From the NCBI GenBank assembly GCA_023266115.1, contig JAHFRU010000013.1, forward strand, positions 1 to 64,000: a stretch of DNA of 64,000 nucleotides, given 5' to 3'. Made by a program: the position numbers and the translations under genes. Shown here piece after piece: positions 58,618-63,912 of the stretch. The stretch is from Gammaproteobacteria bacterium. Its GTDB lineage: Bacteria > Pseudomonadota > Gammaproteobacteria > VBWC01. The notes under the pieces are model-generated. The model saw only the letters and a program-made list of their open reading frames with translations. It did not search any database and was not told the DNA's origin. Position 1 is the first letter of the stretch; the number at the start of each line of letters is the position of its first letter.

Positions 58618-60084
58618 CTAGATAGCCGGCCTCTCGTCCTCGCGTTCTATCAGACGACCCTGCGCCTCACGCGAAATCACCAGATTTTCAAATAACACAT
58701 TGTACGCATTTTGAAGCATTGCCAAATCCGCCTCCGTCAACCGCCGGGGATTTGTTCCATACATTCTGTTTACCTCACCATCAAATATGCGGCCACGGTA
58801 GTCGGTGAGGAATTCAATGACATCACTCCGCCAGTTTTCCGGAGGCGGCTTGTCGATGAGTGCGGCGACCAGCGCTGGCAGTTCTGGCGGAGAGCCGCAA
58901 TAGTGAACTGTTGGAAGCGCGTTAAAATAGTTCTTCGCAAACGCAATTACCGGTTTTCCACGAAGGCCTGCCTCGTAACCGATCGTGCCCGCCAGTGTAA
59001 AAACCAGGGACGTCTTCACAATCAGTTCGAGTGAATCAACGTCTGCTCCAATCAATCTGACGCCGCGTATCTTCTTGATACGCATATAGAATGCCCATGT
59101 CTTCCCGTCTACGTCTGTCGGATGGACCTTGACGTACAATTCATGAGAGACGGGGAGAGACCGGGCGATGAAGGCGATGAGAGCGATTTGATCCGAGAAA
59201 AAAGAGCCGGCGACATCAATAGATGATTCCGGTTGCGTATGAAGCGCGTAAATACAGAAAGGCCCGGTACCCGGCGATGTCCACGGGGAAACTATATTAA
59301 ACGTGATCATGTTGATTCTGCGTTTTGCGTACATCCCGATAATTTTCGGAATTGTGTACCGCGAGAAATCGTTTCCTCTGTCAAAGTAACTTCGTTTCAG
59401 CAAGTTGAGAAAGTGCAAGAAGTGCGGTCGTATCAGGGAAAAAACGTCTTTAAAACTGCTCGCCGCGACCTTCAAAGCAGGACGGCTACTTGTATCCTGA
59501 TAATTTTCAAGCACGCTCTCCGACCATTTCCGATCGTCCGGCCGCCTTTGCCGGATCCGCAGAAAATTGTCTGCATCGTGACCCGCACAGAACCCGTATG
59601 TCTCCTTCGGGATCCTGAGTCGTGTCGGCACCACCCAGGGAATTCCCATGCTGCGGCAGACAAGCATGGCCATCAGCTGCAGCGCCGAATCCCTGCCGCT
59701 GGTAACAATTGAAATCTCCTTTTCCGCGAAAAACCGGGACAGCTTATCCCGGATGTGTTCGAGATATTGCAATGCGAACGGAAGGTCCTTTTCCCGCAGC
59801 ATGCGATCCATCATGATGATGTCGTAGATCCTGGGACCTTCGCTACCTTCCAAATACGCCAGCTTTTCCCTGCAGGCACTCGTATCGCAGTTTCGATCCT
59901 TCAATCCCGCATTTACGTCCAACACCTGGCGTGGAGGCACGCTCATATTCCGCAGCAGATACTGTGCGTCAGACCGATTGATACATACCCAGAACACGTT
60001 GAATCCGCCGCGCCCTAGCACGCTGCCGAACTGCGCGAAATAATCCCCAGGGTAATTGATCAACGCGATGTTCTTACGTTTCAT
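58618..60084 (-). CDS. Capsular polysaccharide biosynthesis (KpsC/S-like) protein
   Basis: A 488-residue protein (start at MKRKNIALINYPGDYFAQFG, 60084). The N-terminal part has an IYDIIMMDRMLREKDLPFAL helix. The C-terminal half has the capsule-synthesis pattern ELYVKVHPTDVDGKTW, VFTLAGTIGYEAGLRGKPVI and FAKNYFNALPTV. KpsC/S-type enzymes transfer Kdo-like residues to a lipid anchor; this looks like the same superfamily in a GT-B fold. It stands between neuC and the acyltransferase. Its sugar is not known and could be the nonulosonic acid made by the neu genes. Confidence 0.7.
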   Translation of the reverse strand: MKRKNIALINYPGDYFAQFGSVLGRGGFNVFWVCINRSDAQYLLRNMSVPPRQVLDVNAGLKDRNCDTSACREKLAYLEGSEGPRIYDIIMMDRMLREKDLPFALQYLEHIRDKLSRFFAEKEISIVTSGRDSALQLMAMLVCRSMGIPWVVPTRLRIPKETYGFCAGHDADNFLRIRQRRPDDRKWSESVLENYQDTSSRPALKVAASSFKDVFSLIRPHFLHFLNLLKRSYFDRGNDFSRYTIPKIIGMYAKRRINMITFNIVSPWTSPGTGPFCIYALHTQPESSIDVAGSFFSDQIALIAFIARSLPVSHELYVKVHPTDVDGKTWAFYMRIKKIRGVRLIGADVDSLELIVKTSLVFTLAGTIGYEAGLRGKPVIAFAKNYFNALPTVHYCGSPPELPALVAALIDKPPPENWRSDVIEFLTDYRGRIFDGEVNRMYGTNPRRLTEADLAMLQNAYNVLFENLVISREAQGRLIEREDERPAI

Positions 60085-60126
60085 GGCGCCCCGCCGAGTG
60101 TATTGTCTTCCAAGCACGCCCCGTGG

Positions 60127-61266
60127 TCAGAGAGCGTCCGGGATCGCGACTCTTGCCAGTTCATCCGCAATCCGAGGCCCTGCGTTACCGGTGCCAAAAC
60201 GATAATCCGGTTGATACCGACCGTGGGCAATCTGTTCACGGATCTTCATCGTAATTTCGTCTTTGTCATAGCCGGCAAACGCCACGTTTTTTCCATGTTC
60301 CCGTCCGTGCTGTCGATCACCAACCATAACCACCGGAACCCCGAGGTAAGCACATTCTCGAATAAAAGACGATGAATTTCCGACACAGCAAACCGCGTTG
60401 TTCAGTACCCGCGCGTAGTCTTCCGGCGCGAAATTCTTAAAATACGAGATCGGCGCGCCCATATTATTTTCCCGGAAGTGACGAATCCCCTTGGAAACAT
60501 GATCGCTGCCCGCGTCGATGTTCGGCCACATCACGATCTTCGGGATTTCCGGTACTTTTTTCAGCGCCTCCAGGGTCTCGCCGACCTGCGTGAATCCGTG
60601 GCCATAACTGGTGGTTACCGGATGCTGCAACATCAGGAGATACGGTTTTTCCCAATCCGCTTTGCACCCGACTCCGTGGTACATCGCCATGTCATCATTA
60701 CTGATGGACAGGTCCTCATTTGCAAGCACATCCATCGCGGGACAGCCATAGTTGAACACGTATCCGGGATCCTCTCCCATCGAAATGACACAACGTGCCG
60801 AAAGCTCCGACGCCACGAAATGGATGTCTGCCAGCTTGGTGATGGCGTGACGAACCCGATCATCAATGTTACCGCTGATCTCGCCGCCCTGAAGGTGCAC
60901 AAGCGGAATGTTGAGATATGTGGCGGCCACCGCAGTTGCCATGGTCTCGAAGCGATCTGCCACCGTGACGACCATATCAGGCTTCAAGTCCTCAAACGCA
61001 GTCGTCAGTTCGACTATTCCCATGCCCGTAGACTTCGCCTGTGTCGAAAGCGTCTCGCCTTCGACGACGTAATAGATCGACCTGAGCGGGACGAACCCGT
61101 CGGCCGTAATAATATCGACGGCGCGGCCAAAGCGTTCCAGCAGCGTTGACGCTCCCACAATTAACTGAAGCTCCAGTTTTGGATGGTTCTGCACCGCCTT
61201 CATCACGTACTTGACGCGCCCATAATTTGCGCGGCTCGCGACCACCACACACACCTTTCTCTTCAT
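60127..61266 (-). CDS. neuC: UDP-N-acetylglucosamine 2-epimerase, hydrolysing
   Basis: A 379-residue GT-B-like epimerase. The start at MKRKVCVVVASRANYGRVKY (61266) overlaps the neuB stop by four bases. VVTVADRFETMATAVAATYL, IPLVHLQGGEISGNIDD and VGNSSSFIRECAYLGVPVV are signatures of the NeuC branch that releases ManNAc (or the 6-deoxy analogue) from the nucleotide. This is the first step to sialic-type acids. The exact hexosamine cannot be read here. Confidence 0.94.
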   Translation of the reverse strand: MKRKVCVVVASRANYGRVKYVMKAVQNHPKLELQLIVGASTLLERFGRAVDIITADGFVPLRSIYYVVEGETLSTQAKSTGMGIVELTTAFEDLKPDMVVTVADRFETMATAVAATYLNIPLVHLQGGEISGNIDDRVRHAITKLADIHFVASELSARCVISMGEDPGYVFNYGCPAMDVLANEDLSISNDDMAMYHGVGCKADWEKPYLLMLQHPVTTSYGHGFTQVGETLEALKKVPEIPKIVMWPNIDAGSDHVSKGIRHFRENNMGAPISYFKNFAPEDYARVLNNAVCCVGNSSSFIRECAYLGVPVVMVGDRQHGREHGKNVAFAGYDKDEITMKIREQIAHGRYQPDYRFGTGNAGPRIADELARVAIPDAL

Positions 61267-62291
61267 TCGAGATCTTCCTGACGCAGAAATTCCCATTGTT
61301 TTATATCGCGCGTCACCTTCTTTCCAATGACCGAGCGCAGCTGATCGACCGGCAAACCTGCGTCGGCCGGCTTTTTACCCTCCAGAACCTCAAAGCGCAA
61401 CGTCTCTCCGCGCCGCACGGCGCGATTGACCGCCAGCGCCTTACCAAACATCCGCCTAAGATCTCGCCTGCTGTCAGTGCCCGCTTTATCGGCGCCGAAA
61501 CCACGCGCCGCCTCAAGGAACCGGATACCCTCAACCAAAGTTGCCAGTTCATTGATTGTCAGCGAAGCAGATGCGTCCGGACCGAACATCCGACGATCGA
61601 AGGTTACATGAAATTCCACCGCCGCTGCGCCCAGCGCAACCGCTCCCAGCATCGCATATATCGTTCCTGAATGATCCGATAAACCGACCGGACAGGCGTA
61701 ACGCTCCCGCAGCTTTCCCAGCCAGGCAAGACCCGTATCCGCTGCCTCTGCCGGATACTTCGTCGCGCATTGGAGCAAAGCATACGAATTCCCGTGTTCG
61801 CGCAACAGCGCCACCGCGGCGTCGATCTCCTCGATCGTTCCGAGGCCGGTGGAAAGAATGACCTCTTTACCTGTAAGCGCAACCTTCGTCAGCAATAGCG
61901 GATTGGCCGCATCGCCCGACCCCACCTTGTATCGTGTGACACCTACCTGTTCGAGCAAATCGATAGCTGCGTTCGAAAACGGTGTCGCCAGAAACTCGAC
62001 CCCGAGCTCGTCGCAGTGCGCCTTTAGCCCCTTCCACTGCTCCGCTGTAAGCTCCATACGCTTCCAGTAATCAAATCGCGTGCGATCCACGTAGGAGAAT
62101 GCCACACGAAACGGCTCCATGACGCTGCTCTCAGCCTCTGCTATATGAACCTGAAACTTCACAGCGTCCACACCGCACTTTGCGGCGGCCTCCAAAAGGG
62201 AATGCAGAATACCGACGCTACCGTCGTGCGCCTGGGCTATCTCTGCGACAACAAATGTCCGCCCGATTTCTTCGTATTCCGTCAATTTCAT
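61263..62291 (-). CDS. neuB: N-acetylneuraminate (nonulosonate) synthase
   Basis: A 342-residue NeuB. The catalytic TIM barrel begins FVVAEIAQAHDGSVGILHSL with AVKFQVHIAEAESS, GVEFLATPFSNAAIDLLEQV, YKVGSGDAANPLLLTKVALT and LSDHSGTIYAMLGAVALGAA. The C-terminal SAF antifreeze-like domain (about 275-342) closes it (NRAVRRGETLRFEVLEGKKP). It condenses PEP with ManNAc or a related hexosamine to a nonulosonic acid. The E and K residues of the family are retained. It lies between neuC and the dehydrogenase. Confidence 0.94.
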   Translation of the reverse strand: MKLTEYEEIGRTFVVAEIAQAHDGSVGILHSLLEAAAKCGVDAVKFQVHIAEAESSVMEPFRVAFSYVDRTRFDYWKRMELTAEQWKGLKAHCDELGVEFLATPFSNAAIDLLEQVGVTRYKVGSGDAANPLLLTKVALTGKEVILSTGLGTIEEIDAAVALLREHGNSYALLQCATKYPAEAADTGLAWLGKLRERYACPVGLSDHSGTIYAMLGAVALGAAAVEFHVTFDRRMFGPDASASLTINELATLVEGIRFLEAARGFGADKAGTDSRRDLRRMFGKALAVNRAVRRGETLRFEVLEGKKPADAGLPVDQLRSVIGKKVTRDIKQWEFLRQEDLE

Positions 62292-63220
62292 ACGGTTGCC
62301 CTGATGCGCTGTTCCAGCAGATCCACAATAAAGCGTTCAGTTCTGGCCATCGACGTCACAGTTGCGCCACCAATATGCGGTGTGACAATGACATTTTCAC
62401 GCTGACTCGCGCGCCGCCAGTCAGCAAGTCGATTATTTCCCGTTTCATCGGAGATCACATCCGTCGCAACACCCGCCAAACGGCGATCAGCAATAGCCGC
62501 CAGCAACGCCGGCTCGTCCACCAGTTCGCCACGCGCCGTATTCACGAAATATCGTCCGGTCAGCGCCGCGACCTCCTTTTTGCCGATTATCGGCGGGTCC
62601 CCATTATTGTACGACGCACACAAGACAATAATCTTGCCGGCATCAATCACAGACCGAATGTCCGGCAACAACCGCCACTTATCTTCCGCTTCCACGGATA
62701 CCCTGTCGTAATAGACCACCCGGGCACCAAATACCGAACAGTAACGGGCCACGCAACGGCCTACGCGACCGAGCCCGATAATACCTACCGTCTGGCCAAA
62801 CAGTTCCTCACCGCGAAACAAATCGCGGTTCCATCCGCCAGAATCCACGTGCGTCAACGCCATTTTATAACGACGCAACAGCGCCAGAATTAACCCGAAT
62901 GTGTGCTCCGGAGTCGCTCTGACCGTCTCGAGAAACGAACGATGCCCGCGCAGGCTGATCAACTCCACCTTTCCTGCCGACAGCGCCGTCTCGTCCAGAT
63001 GGGTATGACTGGTCGTTGGGCTGCATAGATAACGAAGACCGGGCGCCAACTTCAGGAACTCTTTATCTATATCAAACGCCAGCCTGACAAACAGCACGTT
63101 CAGAGGCGCCAGAAATCGACCGAGATCGCCGCCTTCATAACGAGCCACGGCACCAAGCCTCGAAAGCCCGGCCGCCGCATCGGCATCAAAACCCATTGGC
63201 TCCAGAATACCTATTTGCAT
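62288..63220 (-). CDS. D-2-hydroxyacid dehydrogenase family protein
   Basis: A 310-residue NAD-dependent dehydrogenase. The nucleotide site is QTVGIIGLGRVGRCVARYCS, followed by RVVYYDR. The active-site elements are YFVNTARGELVDEPALLAAI with the Arg and VIVTPHIGGATVTS with the His; an acidic residue in VISDE fits the third. It overlaps the neuB gene by four bases and the neuA gene by ten bases, so it is part of the nonulosonate operon. This position is not the usual neuABC content. Its role there is unclear. Confidence 0.88.
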   Translation of the reverse strand: MQIGILEPMGFDADAAAGLSRLGAVARYEGGDLGRFLAPLNVLFVRLAFDIDKEFLKLAPGLRYLCSPTTSHTHLDETALSAGKVELISLRGHRSFLETVRATPEHTFGLILALLRRYKMALTHVDSGGWNRDLFRGEELFGQTVGIIGLGRVGRCVARYCSVFGARVVYYDRVSVEAEDKWRLLPDIRSVIDAGKIIVLCASYNNGDPPIIGKKEVAALTGRYFVNTARGELVDEPALLAAIADRRLAGVATDVISDETGNNRLADWRRASQRENVIVTPHIGGATVTSMARTERFIVDLLEQRIRATV

Positions 63221-63912
63221 GACTCTAATACGGCGCGCAGCAACTTGAGATCATCCGGCGTATCCACGTCAATGGAATCGACTTTGCTCATCTGCATGAA
63301 CATCGGGCGATCGCATACCAGTTGCCCGGTCGCGCGCAGGTACGGGACACGCGTAATATAAAGCGCACCGTTTCTGATTAAGGCCGCTTGCTGCTCCTGG
63401 CGCCTGAGCCCCTTATTATGTAACGGACTTCGCGGCCGAAGCGTTCCGTCCCCCAAATCGTCATACATCACCAATTCGGTGATATAGTCCTCTCTGTAAC
63501 ACGAAATCAATGAATGAAAACTCTGCGAAGCAAACCGCTCTGTCGCTTCCTTAATCGCCCTTGAATTGCGGAGTGGACTGGTTGGTTGCAACAACATCAC
63601 CGCATCGTAGCTTCCGTCCGTTTTCTCCAAAACCTCCAGTGCGTGCATCACATATGCTATGGCCTTCGCAGTGTCGGTAGCGGCATCAGCCGGGCGCATA
63701 AACGGGACGTCGGCGCGCATATTGCGCGCCACCATCGCGATTTCCGCGTCATCGGTTGACACAATGCAACGCGATAAAGTCCCCGAATCGAGCAGGTCAA
63801 GTCCGGTGTCAATCGAGTACGCAATTAGCGGCCGACCACAAACATCCGCAAGATTTTTCCTGGGAATGCCTTTCGAACCCCCGCGAGCAGGAATAATACC
63901 TAGAATTTGCAT
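63211..63912 (-). CDS. neuA: CMP-nonulosonate cytidylyltransferase
   Basis: A 233-residue nucleotidyltransferase with LGIIPARGGSKGIPRKNLAD (CTP binding), LLQPTSPLRNSRAIKEATE, and RNGALYITRVPYL of the CMP-sialate synthetase family; SKVDSIDVDTPDDLKLLR closes it. It activates a nonulosonic acid with CTP. The gene overlaps the dehydrogenase by ten bases. It is the most upstream gene of the locus inside the window. Confidence 0.93.
   Translation of the reverse strand: MQILGIIPARGGSKGIPRKNLADVCGRPLIAYSIDTGLDLLDSGTLSRCIVSTDDAEIAMVARNMRADVPFMRPADAATDTAKAIAYVMHALEVLEKTDGSYDAVMLLQPTSPLRNSRAIKEATERFASQSFHSLISCYREDYITELVMYDDLGDGTLRPRSPLHNKGLRRQEQQAALIRNGALYITRVPYLRATGQLVCDRPMFMQMSKVDSIDVDTPDDLKLLRAVLESCK

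What the first reader, a model, noticed from the sequence alone, without database searches (positions are those of the whole stretch)
62288..63220. D-2-hydroxyacid dehydrogenase embedded in a neuA-neuB-neuC operon
Between neuA and neuB, with overlaps of 10 and 4 bases, lies an intact 2-hydroxyacid dehydrogenase. This enzyme is not part of textbook sialic, legionaminic or pseudaminic acid pathways. It could act on the keto-acid, on a precursor such as a PEP-derived unit, or make a modified nonulosonic acid. The overlaps argue for coupled translation with neuA and neuB.
Basis: partly seen in the sequence, partly recalled or inferred. Interest (0 to 1): 0.6.

Follow-up and report, generated by a model that had tools for sequence, protein, structure and literature searches.

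The report
Sialic-acid-operon 2-hydroxyacid dehydrogenase family
The odd dehydrogenase inside this sialic-acid operon is not a stray: close relatives sit beside, and sometimes fused to, the sialic-acid genes in many bacterial phyla and one archaeon, so an unexplained extra step in making these surface sugars appears to be widespread.

Summary
In detail: an intact 310-aa D-2-hydroxyacid dehydrogenase (2HADH) lies between neuA and neuB, overlapping neuA by 10 bases and neuB by 4; neuB and neuC can also overlap by ATGA. It is conserved. Homologues chosen by sequence similarity alone lie next to NeuA and/or NeuB in 22 of the 23 best loci of a scan of 84,980 species, against 2 of the next 57. They span a dozen bacterial phyla and a Lokiarchaeon, and form one tree group (53 rows, SH-aLRT 99, 50 with neu genes; quick method). 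In Magnetococcales and Elusimicrobia the 2HADH is fused to NeuA in one chain. The catalytic Arg/Glu/His are invariant in 51 members. So it is a dedicated nonulosonic-acid (NulO) pathway enzyme. The genome has a separate serC-serA locus, so it is not the housekeeping phosphoglycerate dehydrogenase. The substrate is unproven. It occurs with and without NeuC, clings to NeuA, and lacks a conserved acyl-transfer partner; I favour action on the alpha-keto-acid end of the NulO over supply of a small hydroxyacid, at low confidence. I found no paper describing the association; [quoted passage not shown]

The parts
62288..63220 (-). D-2-hydroxyacid dehydrogenase, 310 aa; member of a NulO-locus-associated 2HADH group; catalytic R230, E259, H282; NAD-type D172; group residues T70, H74
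   Evidence: AlphaFold model pLDDT 89.6 with a full 2HADH fold
63211..63912 (-). neuA: CMP-NulO synthetase (cytidylyltransferase), 233 aa, with intact PARGGSKGIPRKN, LLQPTSPLR, NGALY and IDVDTPDD motifs
61263..62291 (-). neuB: NulO synthase, 342 aa (closest solved relatives: meningococcal SiaC/NeuB, then pseudaminic acid synthase)
60127..61296 (-). neuC: hydrolysing UDP-GlcNAc 2-epimerase, above the NCBIfam cut-off (352 vs 236 bits); likely start at 61266
63211..63220 (-). 10-base overlap of neuA and the 2HADH gene
62288..62291 (-). 4-base ATGA overlap of the 2HADH gene and neuB
61263..61266 (-). 4-base ATGA overlap of neuB and neuC if neuC starts at the internal ATG
   Evidence: (sequence)
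58618..60117 (-). next gene downstream: Capsule_synth-like protein (PF05159), candidate glycosyltransferase that uses the product (inference)

Best explanation
The gene encodes an active NAD(H)-dependent D-2-hydroxyacid dehydrogenase that is a dedicated member of a nonulosonic acid pathway. It is made together with, and probably works beside, the CMP-NulO synthetase NeuA and the synthase NeuB. Shown: conserved adjacency, fusion to NeuA, one sequence group, intact catalytic residues. Inferred: NeuC and NeuB make a neuraminic-type NulO (an open-chain 2-keto-3-deoxy acid in equilibrium with its ring), and the dehydrogenase acts on the alpha-keto/alpha-hydroxy acid end of that NulO or a close derivative before or in competition with CMP activation. 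This would be a chemistry like that of 2HADHs that reduce 2-keto-D-gluconate. The direction of the reaction and the fate of the product are unknown.
For: Pathway membership (about 0.93): 22/23 against 2/57 neu adjacency; nearly all 24 phylum hits beside or fused to NeuA/NeuB; one 53-row group at SH-aLRT 99; R/E/H 51/51. Action on the shared keto-acid end (about 0.35): present with NeuC and without it (about half the loci), so it does not depend on one hexosamine precursor; closest partner is NeuA, fused in Magnetococcales and Elusimicrobia; genes within three positions show no recurrent CoA-ligase or N-acyltransferase; 2HADHs of the GHRB and CTBP groups accept 2-keto-D-gluconate (PMC6303947); the bulky Trp said there to exclude large substrates is absent at the aligned place; in some fusions the NeuA half has lost its catalytic motifs while the 2HADH half stays intact.
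Against: Reducing C2 of a NulO would remove the anomeric centre that NeuA activates, and no glycan containing a reduced NulO is known to me. The nearest solved relatives by sequence and fold are phosphoglycerate dehydrogenases and glyoxylate/hydroxypyruvate reductases, which use small substrates. Distance-matrix correlation of 2HADH with NeuA (0.25-0.30) is not higher than with NeuB (0.36-0.44), so the data do not single out NeuA as the co-evolving partner. Pocket arguments come from alignment only.
Confidence: 0.38

Rival explanations
1. The dehydrogenase makes a small D-2-hydroxyacid (D-glycerate from hydroxypyruvate, glycolate from glyoxylate or D-lactate from pyruvate) that is attached to the NulO as an N- or O-acyl group.
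For: Known chemistry of the closest characterised relatives. NulOs with N-glyceroyl and N-glycolyl groups exist in Tannerella forsythia, and the gene for the glyceroyl group was reported as 'elusive' (PMC6120980, PMC6388019). Hexapeptide acyltransferases occur within three genes in 5 of 121 neighbours.
Against: No conserved acyltransferase or acyl-CoA ligase partner. It does not explain the fusion to NeuA. The T. forsythia O-glycan cluster as described lists no 2HADH. Glycerate and glycolate are available from central metabolism.
Confidence: 0.3
2. The enzyme controls flux or repairs metabolites: it diverts or recycles excess free NulO (or a NeuB side product) to or from a 2-hydroxy acid and so tunes CMP-NulO supply to the redox state.
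For: Fusion to NeuA and translational coupling fit a stoichiometric control role; retained in loci with different NulO genes. CTBP-group 2HADHs are known NAD(H)-responsive proteins (general knowledge; PMC6303947).
Against: Most NeuB-bearing genomes sampled in the class lack it (a 2HADH of this group in 3 genomes, against 58 of 229 with NeuB), so a general repair role is unlikely.
Confidence: 0.15
3. It is an ordinary metabolic 2HADH (SerA, GhrB or similar) that happens to sit in the operon.
For: Pfam sees only a generic 2HADH domain.
Against: All NCBIfam equivalog cut-offs missed by a wide margin (PGDH 112 vs 454 bits). A separate serA lies in a serC-serA locus of the same genome. Homologues form a group with recurrent neu context.
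Confidence: 0.03

Closest known systems
D-2-hydroxyacid dehydrogenase superfamily (PF02826), SerA and GHRB/GRHPR subfamilies
   Same: Fold, GxGxxG with NAD-type Asp, catalytic Arg/Glu/His, carboxylate-binding loop
   Different: Own group in the tree; invariant T70 and H74 where the other 2HADHs compared mostly have Val and Asn; a short insertion before the catalytic His (A271 region) absent in most others; genomic context is NulO synthesis, not serine or glyoxylate metabolism
neuBCA Neu5Ac pathway (E. coli, Neisseria, Campylobacter LOS)
   Same: NeuC, NeuB and NeuA homologues in one operon
   Different: Extra 2HADH between neuA and neuB; NeuA and NeuB fall below NCBIfam equivalog cut-offs
Legionaminic and pseudaminic acid clusters (Leg/Pse, ptm)
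   Same: NeuB/NeuA-type core
   Different: 20 control NeuB loci without 2HADH have DegT aminotransferases (9 of 106 neighbours), dehydratase-type Polysacc_synt_2 (9) and CBS (8)/NTP-transferase (7) genes; in 2HADH loci DegT and NTP-transferase are not among the 25 commonest families of 121 neighbours
[quoted passage not shown]
   Same: A NulO enzyme joined to a PGDH-like domain
   Different: Mentioned in one clause in a single species, no function proposed; its sequence was not examined here

Membership tests
D-2-hydroxyacid dehydrogenases (PF02826) | NAD-binding domain over the curated cut-off | tested here: met
   132 vs 25.1 bits
D-2-hydroxyacid dehydrogenases (PF02826) | Catalytic Arg, Glu, His | tested here: met
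   R230, E259, H282 invariant in 51/51 group members
D-2-hydroxyacid dehydrogenases (PF02826) | Measured oxidation of a D-2-hydroxyacid or reduction of a 2-keto acid | not testable with these tools
   needs assay
Phosphoglycerate dehydrogenase SerA (TIGR01327) | Equivalog score | tested here: not met
   112 vs 454 bits; separate serA in the genome
GhrA/GhrB glyoxylate/hydroxypyruvate reductases (NCBIfam) | Equivalog score | tested here: not met
   GhrB 68 vs 492, GhrA 31 vs 403 bits
Neu5Ac operon neuABC | NeuC-type hydrolysing epimerase | tested here: met
   TIGR03568 352 vs 236 bits
Neu5Ac operon neuABC | NeuB equivalog | tested here: not met
   TIGR03569 284 vs 400 bits; PseI 207 vs 340; exact NulO therefore not assigned
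Neu5Ac operon neuABC | Product is Neu5Ac | not testable with these tools
   needs mass spectrometry or NMR
Legionaminic/pseudaminic pathway | Adjacent 4,6-dehydratase plus DegT aminotransferase | tested here: inconclusive
   none between the four neu genes; SDR and DegT genes lie 4 kb and more upstream on the contig among genes for other sugars; depleted near 2HADH loci in general
NulO-associated 2HADH group (defined here) | Neu-gene context and sequence group | tested here: met
   53-row group with the window protein, SH-aLRT 99, 50 rows with neu genes

The most novel reading that the evidence does not exclude
A widespread, undescribed branch of nonulosonic acid biosynthesis in which a dedicated dehydrogenase acts directly on the NulO (or on CMP activation of it), yielding a new class of NulO-derived product or a redox-controlled step, present across many bacterial phyla and in an Asgard archaeon.
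Probability: 0.35. Interest if true: 0.78.

Novelty: new variant of a known kind. Interest (0 to 1): 0.57.

Why it matters
Nonulosonic acids shape how microbes meet hosts, phages and each other, and their structures are predicted from gene content. An enzyme that recurs in this operon across many phyla but is absent from textbook pathways means such predictions ('neuABC, so Neu5Ac') may be wrong for a sizeable group of organisms. The fusions and cultured isolates that carry the locus (Flavicella marina, Gelidibacter japonicus, Portibacter marinus) make the question directly testable.

Tried and rejected
Housekeeping SerA: rejected (equivalog score; separate serC-serA locus). Phosphonate/phosphite context of plasmid hits (Sulfitobacter, Nitratireductor): unrelated loci, about 30% identity. 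Pantoea plasmid hit: no neu genes. Viral contigs: none found with single-protein patterns; phage records only generic 2HADHs. A shared acyltransferase/CoA-ligase partner: not found. NeuA-specific co-evolution: distance correlations weak and no stronger than with NeuB. Asparagine synthase as a partner: in 9 of 33 loci, but such genes are common in polysaccharide loci, so not taken as linked. Literature: eight searches found no paper describing the association; the library lacks most subscription journals. The second structure job was not used because it would not resolve the substrate.

Full report
OBSERVATION. On the minus strand, neuA (63211-63912), a 310-aa D-2-hydroxyacid dehydrogenase (62288-63220), neuB (61263-62291) and neuC (60127-61296) follow one another. 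The overlaps are 10 bases (neuA/2HADH) and 4 bases (2HADH/neuB, ATGA); neuB and neuC share ATGA if neuC starts at its internal ATG at 61266. Pfam and NCBIfam agree on the four enzymes. NeuA keeps the cytidylyltransferase motifs. NeuC passes its equivalog cut-off; NeuB and NeuA do not, so the exact sugar cannot be named.

CONSERVATION. Homologues were selected by sequence only. In 369 genomes of the class two had a strong match, and both turned out to lie beside a NeuA gene. A profile from those three found 23 further genomes in 398 of the phylum, nearly all with the gene next to NeuA or NeuB or fused to NeuA. A 21-sequence profile against 84,980 species gave 80 loci. Of the best 23, 22 lie next to NeuA and/or NeuB; of the next 57, two do (Pelagibacteraceae, with two tandem 2HADHs after NeuA). 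The organisms include Pseudomonadota, Bacteroidota, Spirochaetota, Desulfobacterota, Chloroflexota, Cyanobacteria (Prochlorococcus), Planctomycetota, Nitrospirota, Elusimicrobiota, Omnitrophota, Parcubacteria and a Lokiarchaeon (most are metagenome-assembled). The closest relative, a Polaromonas MAG (59%), has the same order neuA-2HADH-neuB-neuC. In the window's class 58 of 229 sampled genomes have a NeuB homologue and only three genomes a 2HADH of this group, so most NulO pathways there lack it. The other genome of the same genus has neither gene at the thresholds used.

TREE AND RESIDUES. In a tree of 111 2HADHs, 53 rows including the window protein form one group (SH-aLRT 99; quick method, no bootstrap). 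50 of them carry neu genes; L039 is a further NeuA fusion whose NeuA half is degenerate, and two long-branch rows (L080, L088) lack neu genes. The catalytic R230, E259 and H282 are invariant in 51 members, and D172 (49/51, Glu in 2) fits NAD(H), the Asp that Matelska et al. name for that preference (PMC6303947). T70 and H74 are invariant in the group but mostly Val and Asn in the others. The AlphaFold model (pLDDT 89.6) is a standard 2HADH fold.

FUSIONS. In two families identified as Magnetococcales by identical sequences (L036=L078, L040=L081) and in an Elusimicrobia MAG, NeuA and the 2HADH are one chain of about 590-630 aa. In one family (f211) the NeuA half has lost the nucleotide-binding and metal motifs while the 2HADH half is intact. 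That argues that the dehydrogenase is what is being kept.

CONTEXT. The gene occurs with NeuC and without it. Among 121 neighbours of 31 2HADH loci, the genes typical of legionaminic and pseudaminic pathways (DegT aminotransferase, CBS/NTP-transferase) are missing from the 25 commonest families; in 106 neighbours of 20 control NeuB loci they are common. The controls are all from the window's class while the 2HADH loci are from many phyla, so this comparison is confounded by taxonomy. No acyl-transfer partner recurs.

MECHANISM. Shown: a dedicated, conserved, probably active NAD(H) enzyme of NulO loci. Inferred: because it accompanies different NulO gene sets and clings to NeuA, it more likely acts on what all NulOs share, the alpha-keto-acid end, than on one side-chain group. 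Members of the superfamily do reduce a sugar keto-acid, 2-keto-D-gluconate (PMC6303947). The strongest rival is production of a small hydroxyacid for an N-acyl group: N-glyceroyl and N-glycolyl NulOs are known in Tannerella forsythia, where the glyceroyl gene was called elusive. Neither is proved.

NOVELTY. I found no description of the association in the open library. A Leptospira genome paper notes in one sentence that L. [quoted passage not shown] The parts are known kinds; the recurrent module and its function are not, hence 'new variant of a known kind'.

Noticed in passing
L059:8627-10405, L042:487-2310, L045:421-2310, L039:1483-3255: NeuA-2HADH fusions in which the NeuA half has lost the ARxGSK...KN and DxD motifs while the 2HADH half keeps its catalytic residues.
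   Followed up: partly
L117:4818-6688, L121:8881-10762 (Pelagibacteraceae): Two tandem 2HADH genes directly after NeuA; the first is very divergent but still keeps Arg, Glu and His.
   Followed up: partly
contig C39 about 64194-65999 (L022:4195-6000), just upstream of neuA: Asparagine-synthase-like amidotransferase beside the neu genes; such genes occur in 9 of 33 2HADH loci, directly after the 2HADH in Desulfofustis (L061) and Flavicella (L076).
   Followed up: partly
window 61263-61296: neuC is listed from 61296 but an internal ATG at 61266 overlaps the neuB stop as ATGA and gives the usual NeuC N-terminus.
   Followed up: yes
window 62180-62893 (+): A 237-aa open frame on the strand opposite the 2HADH; no sign that it is a gene, probably a shadow of the coding strand.
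   Followed up: no
L170 (G104): A control locus with two sets of neu genes whose NeuC is 66% identical to the window's but which has no 2HADH, so the base pathway exists without it.
   Followed up: partly
[quoted passage not shown] it could be a further fusion of this kind. The sequence was not looked at.
   Followed up: no
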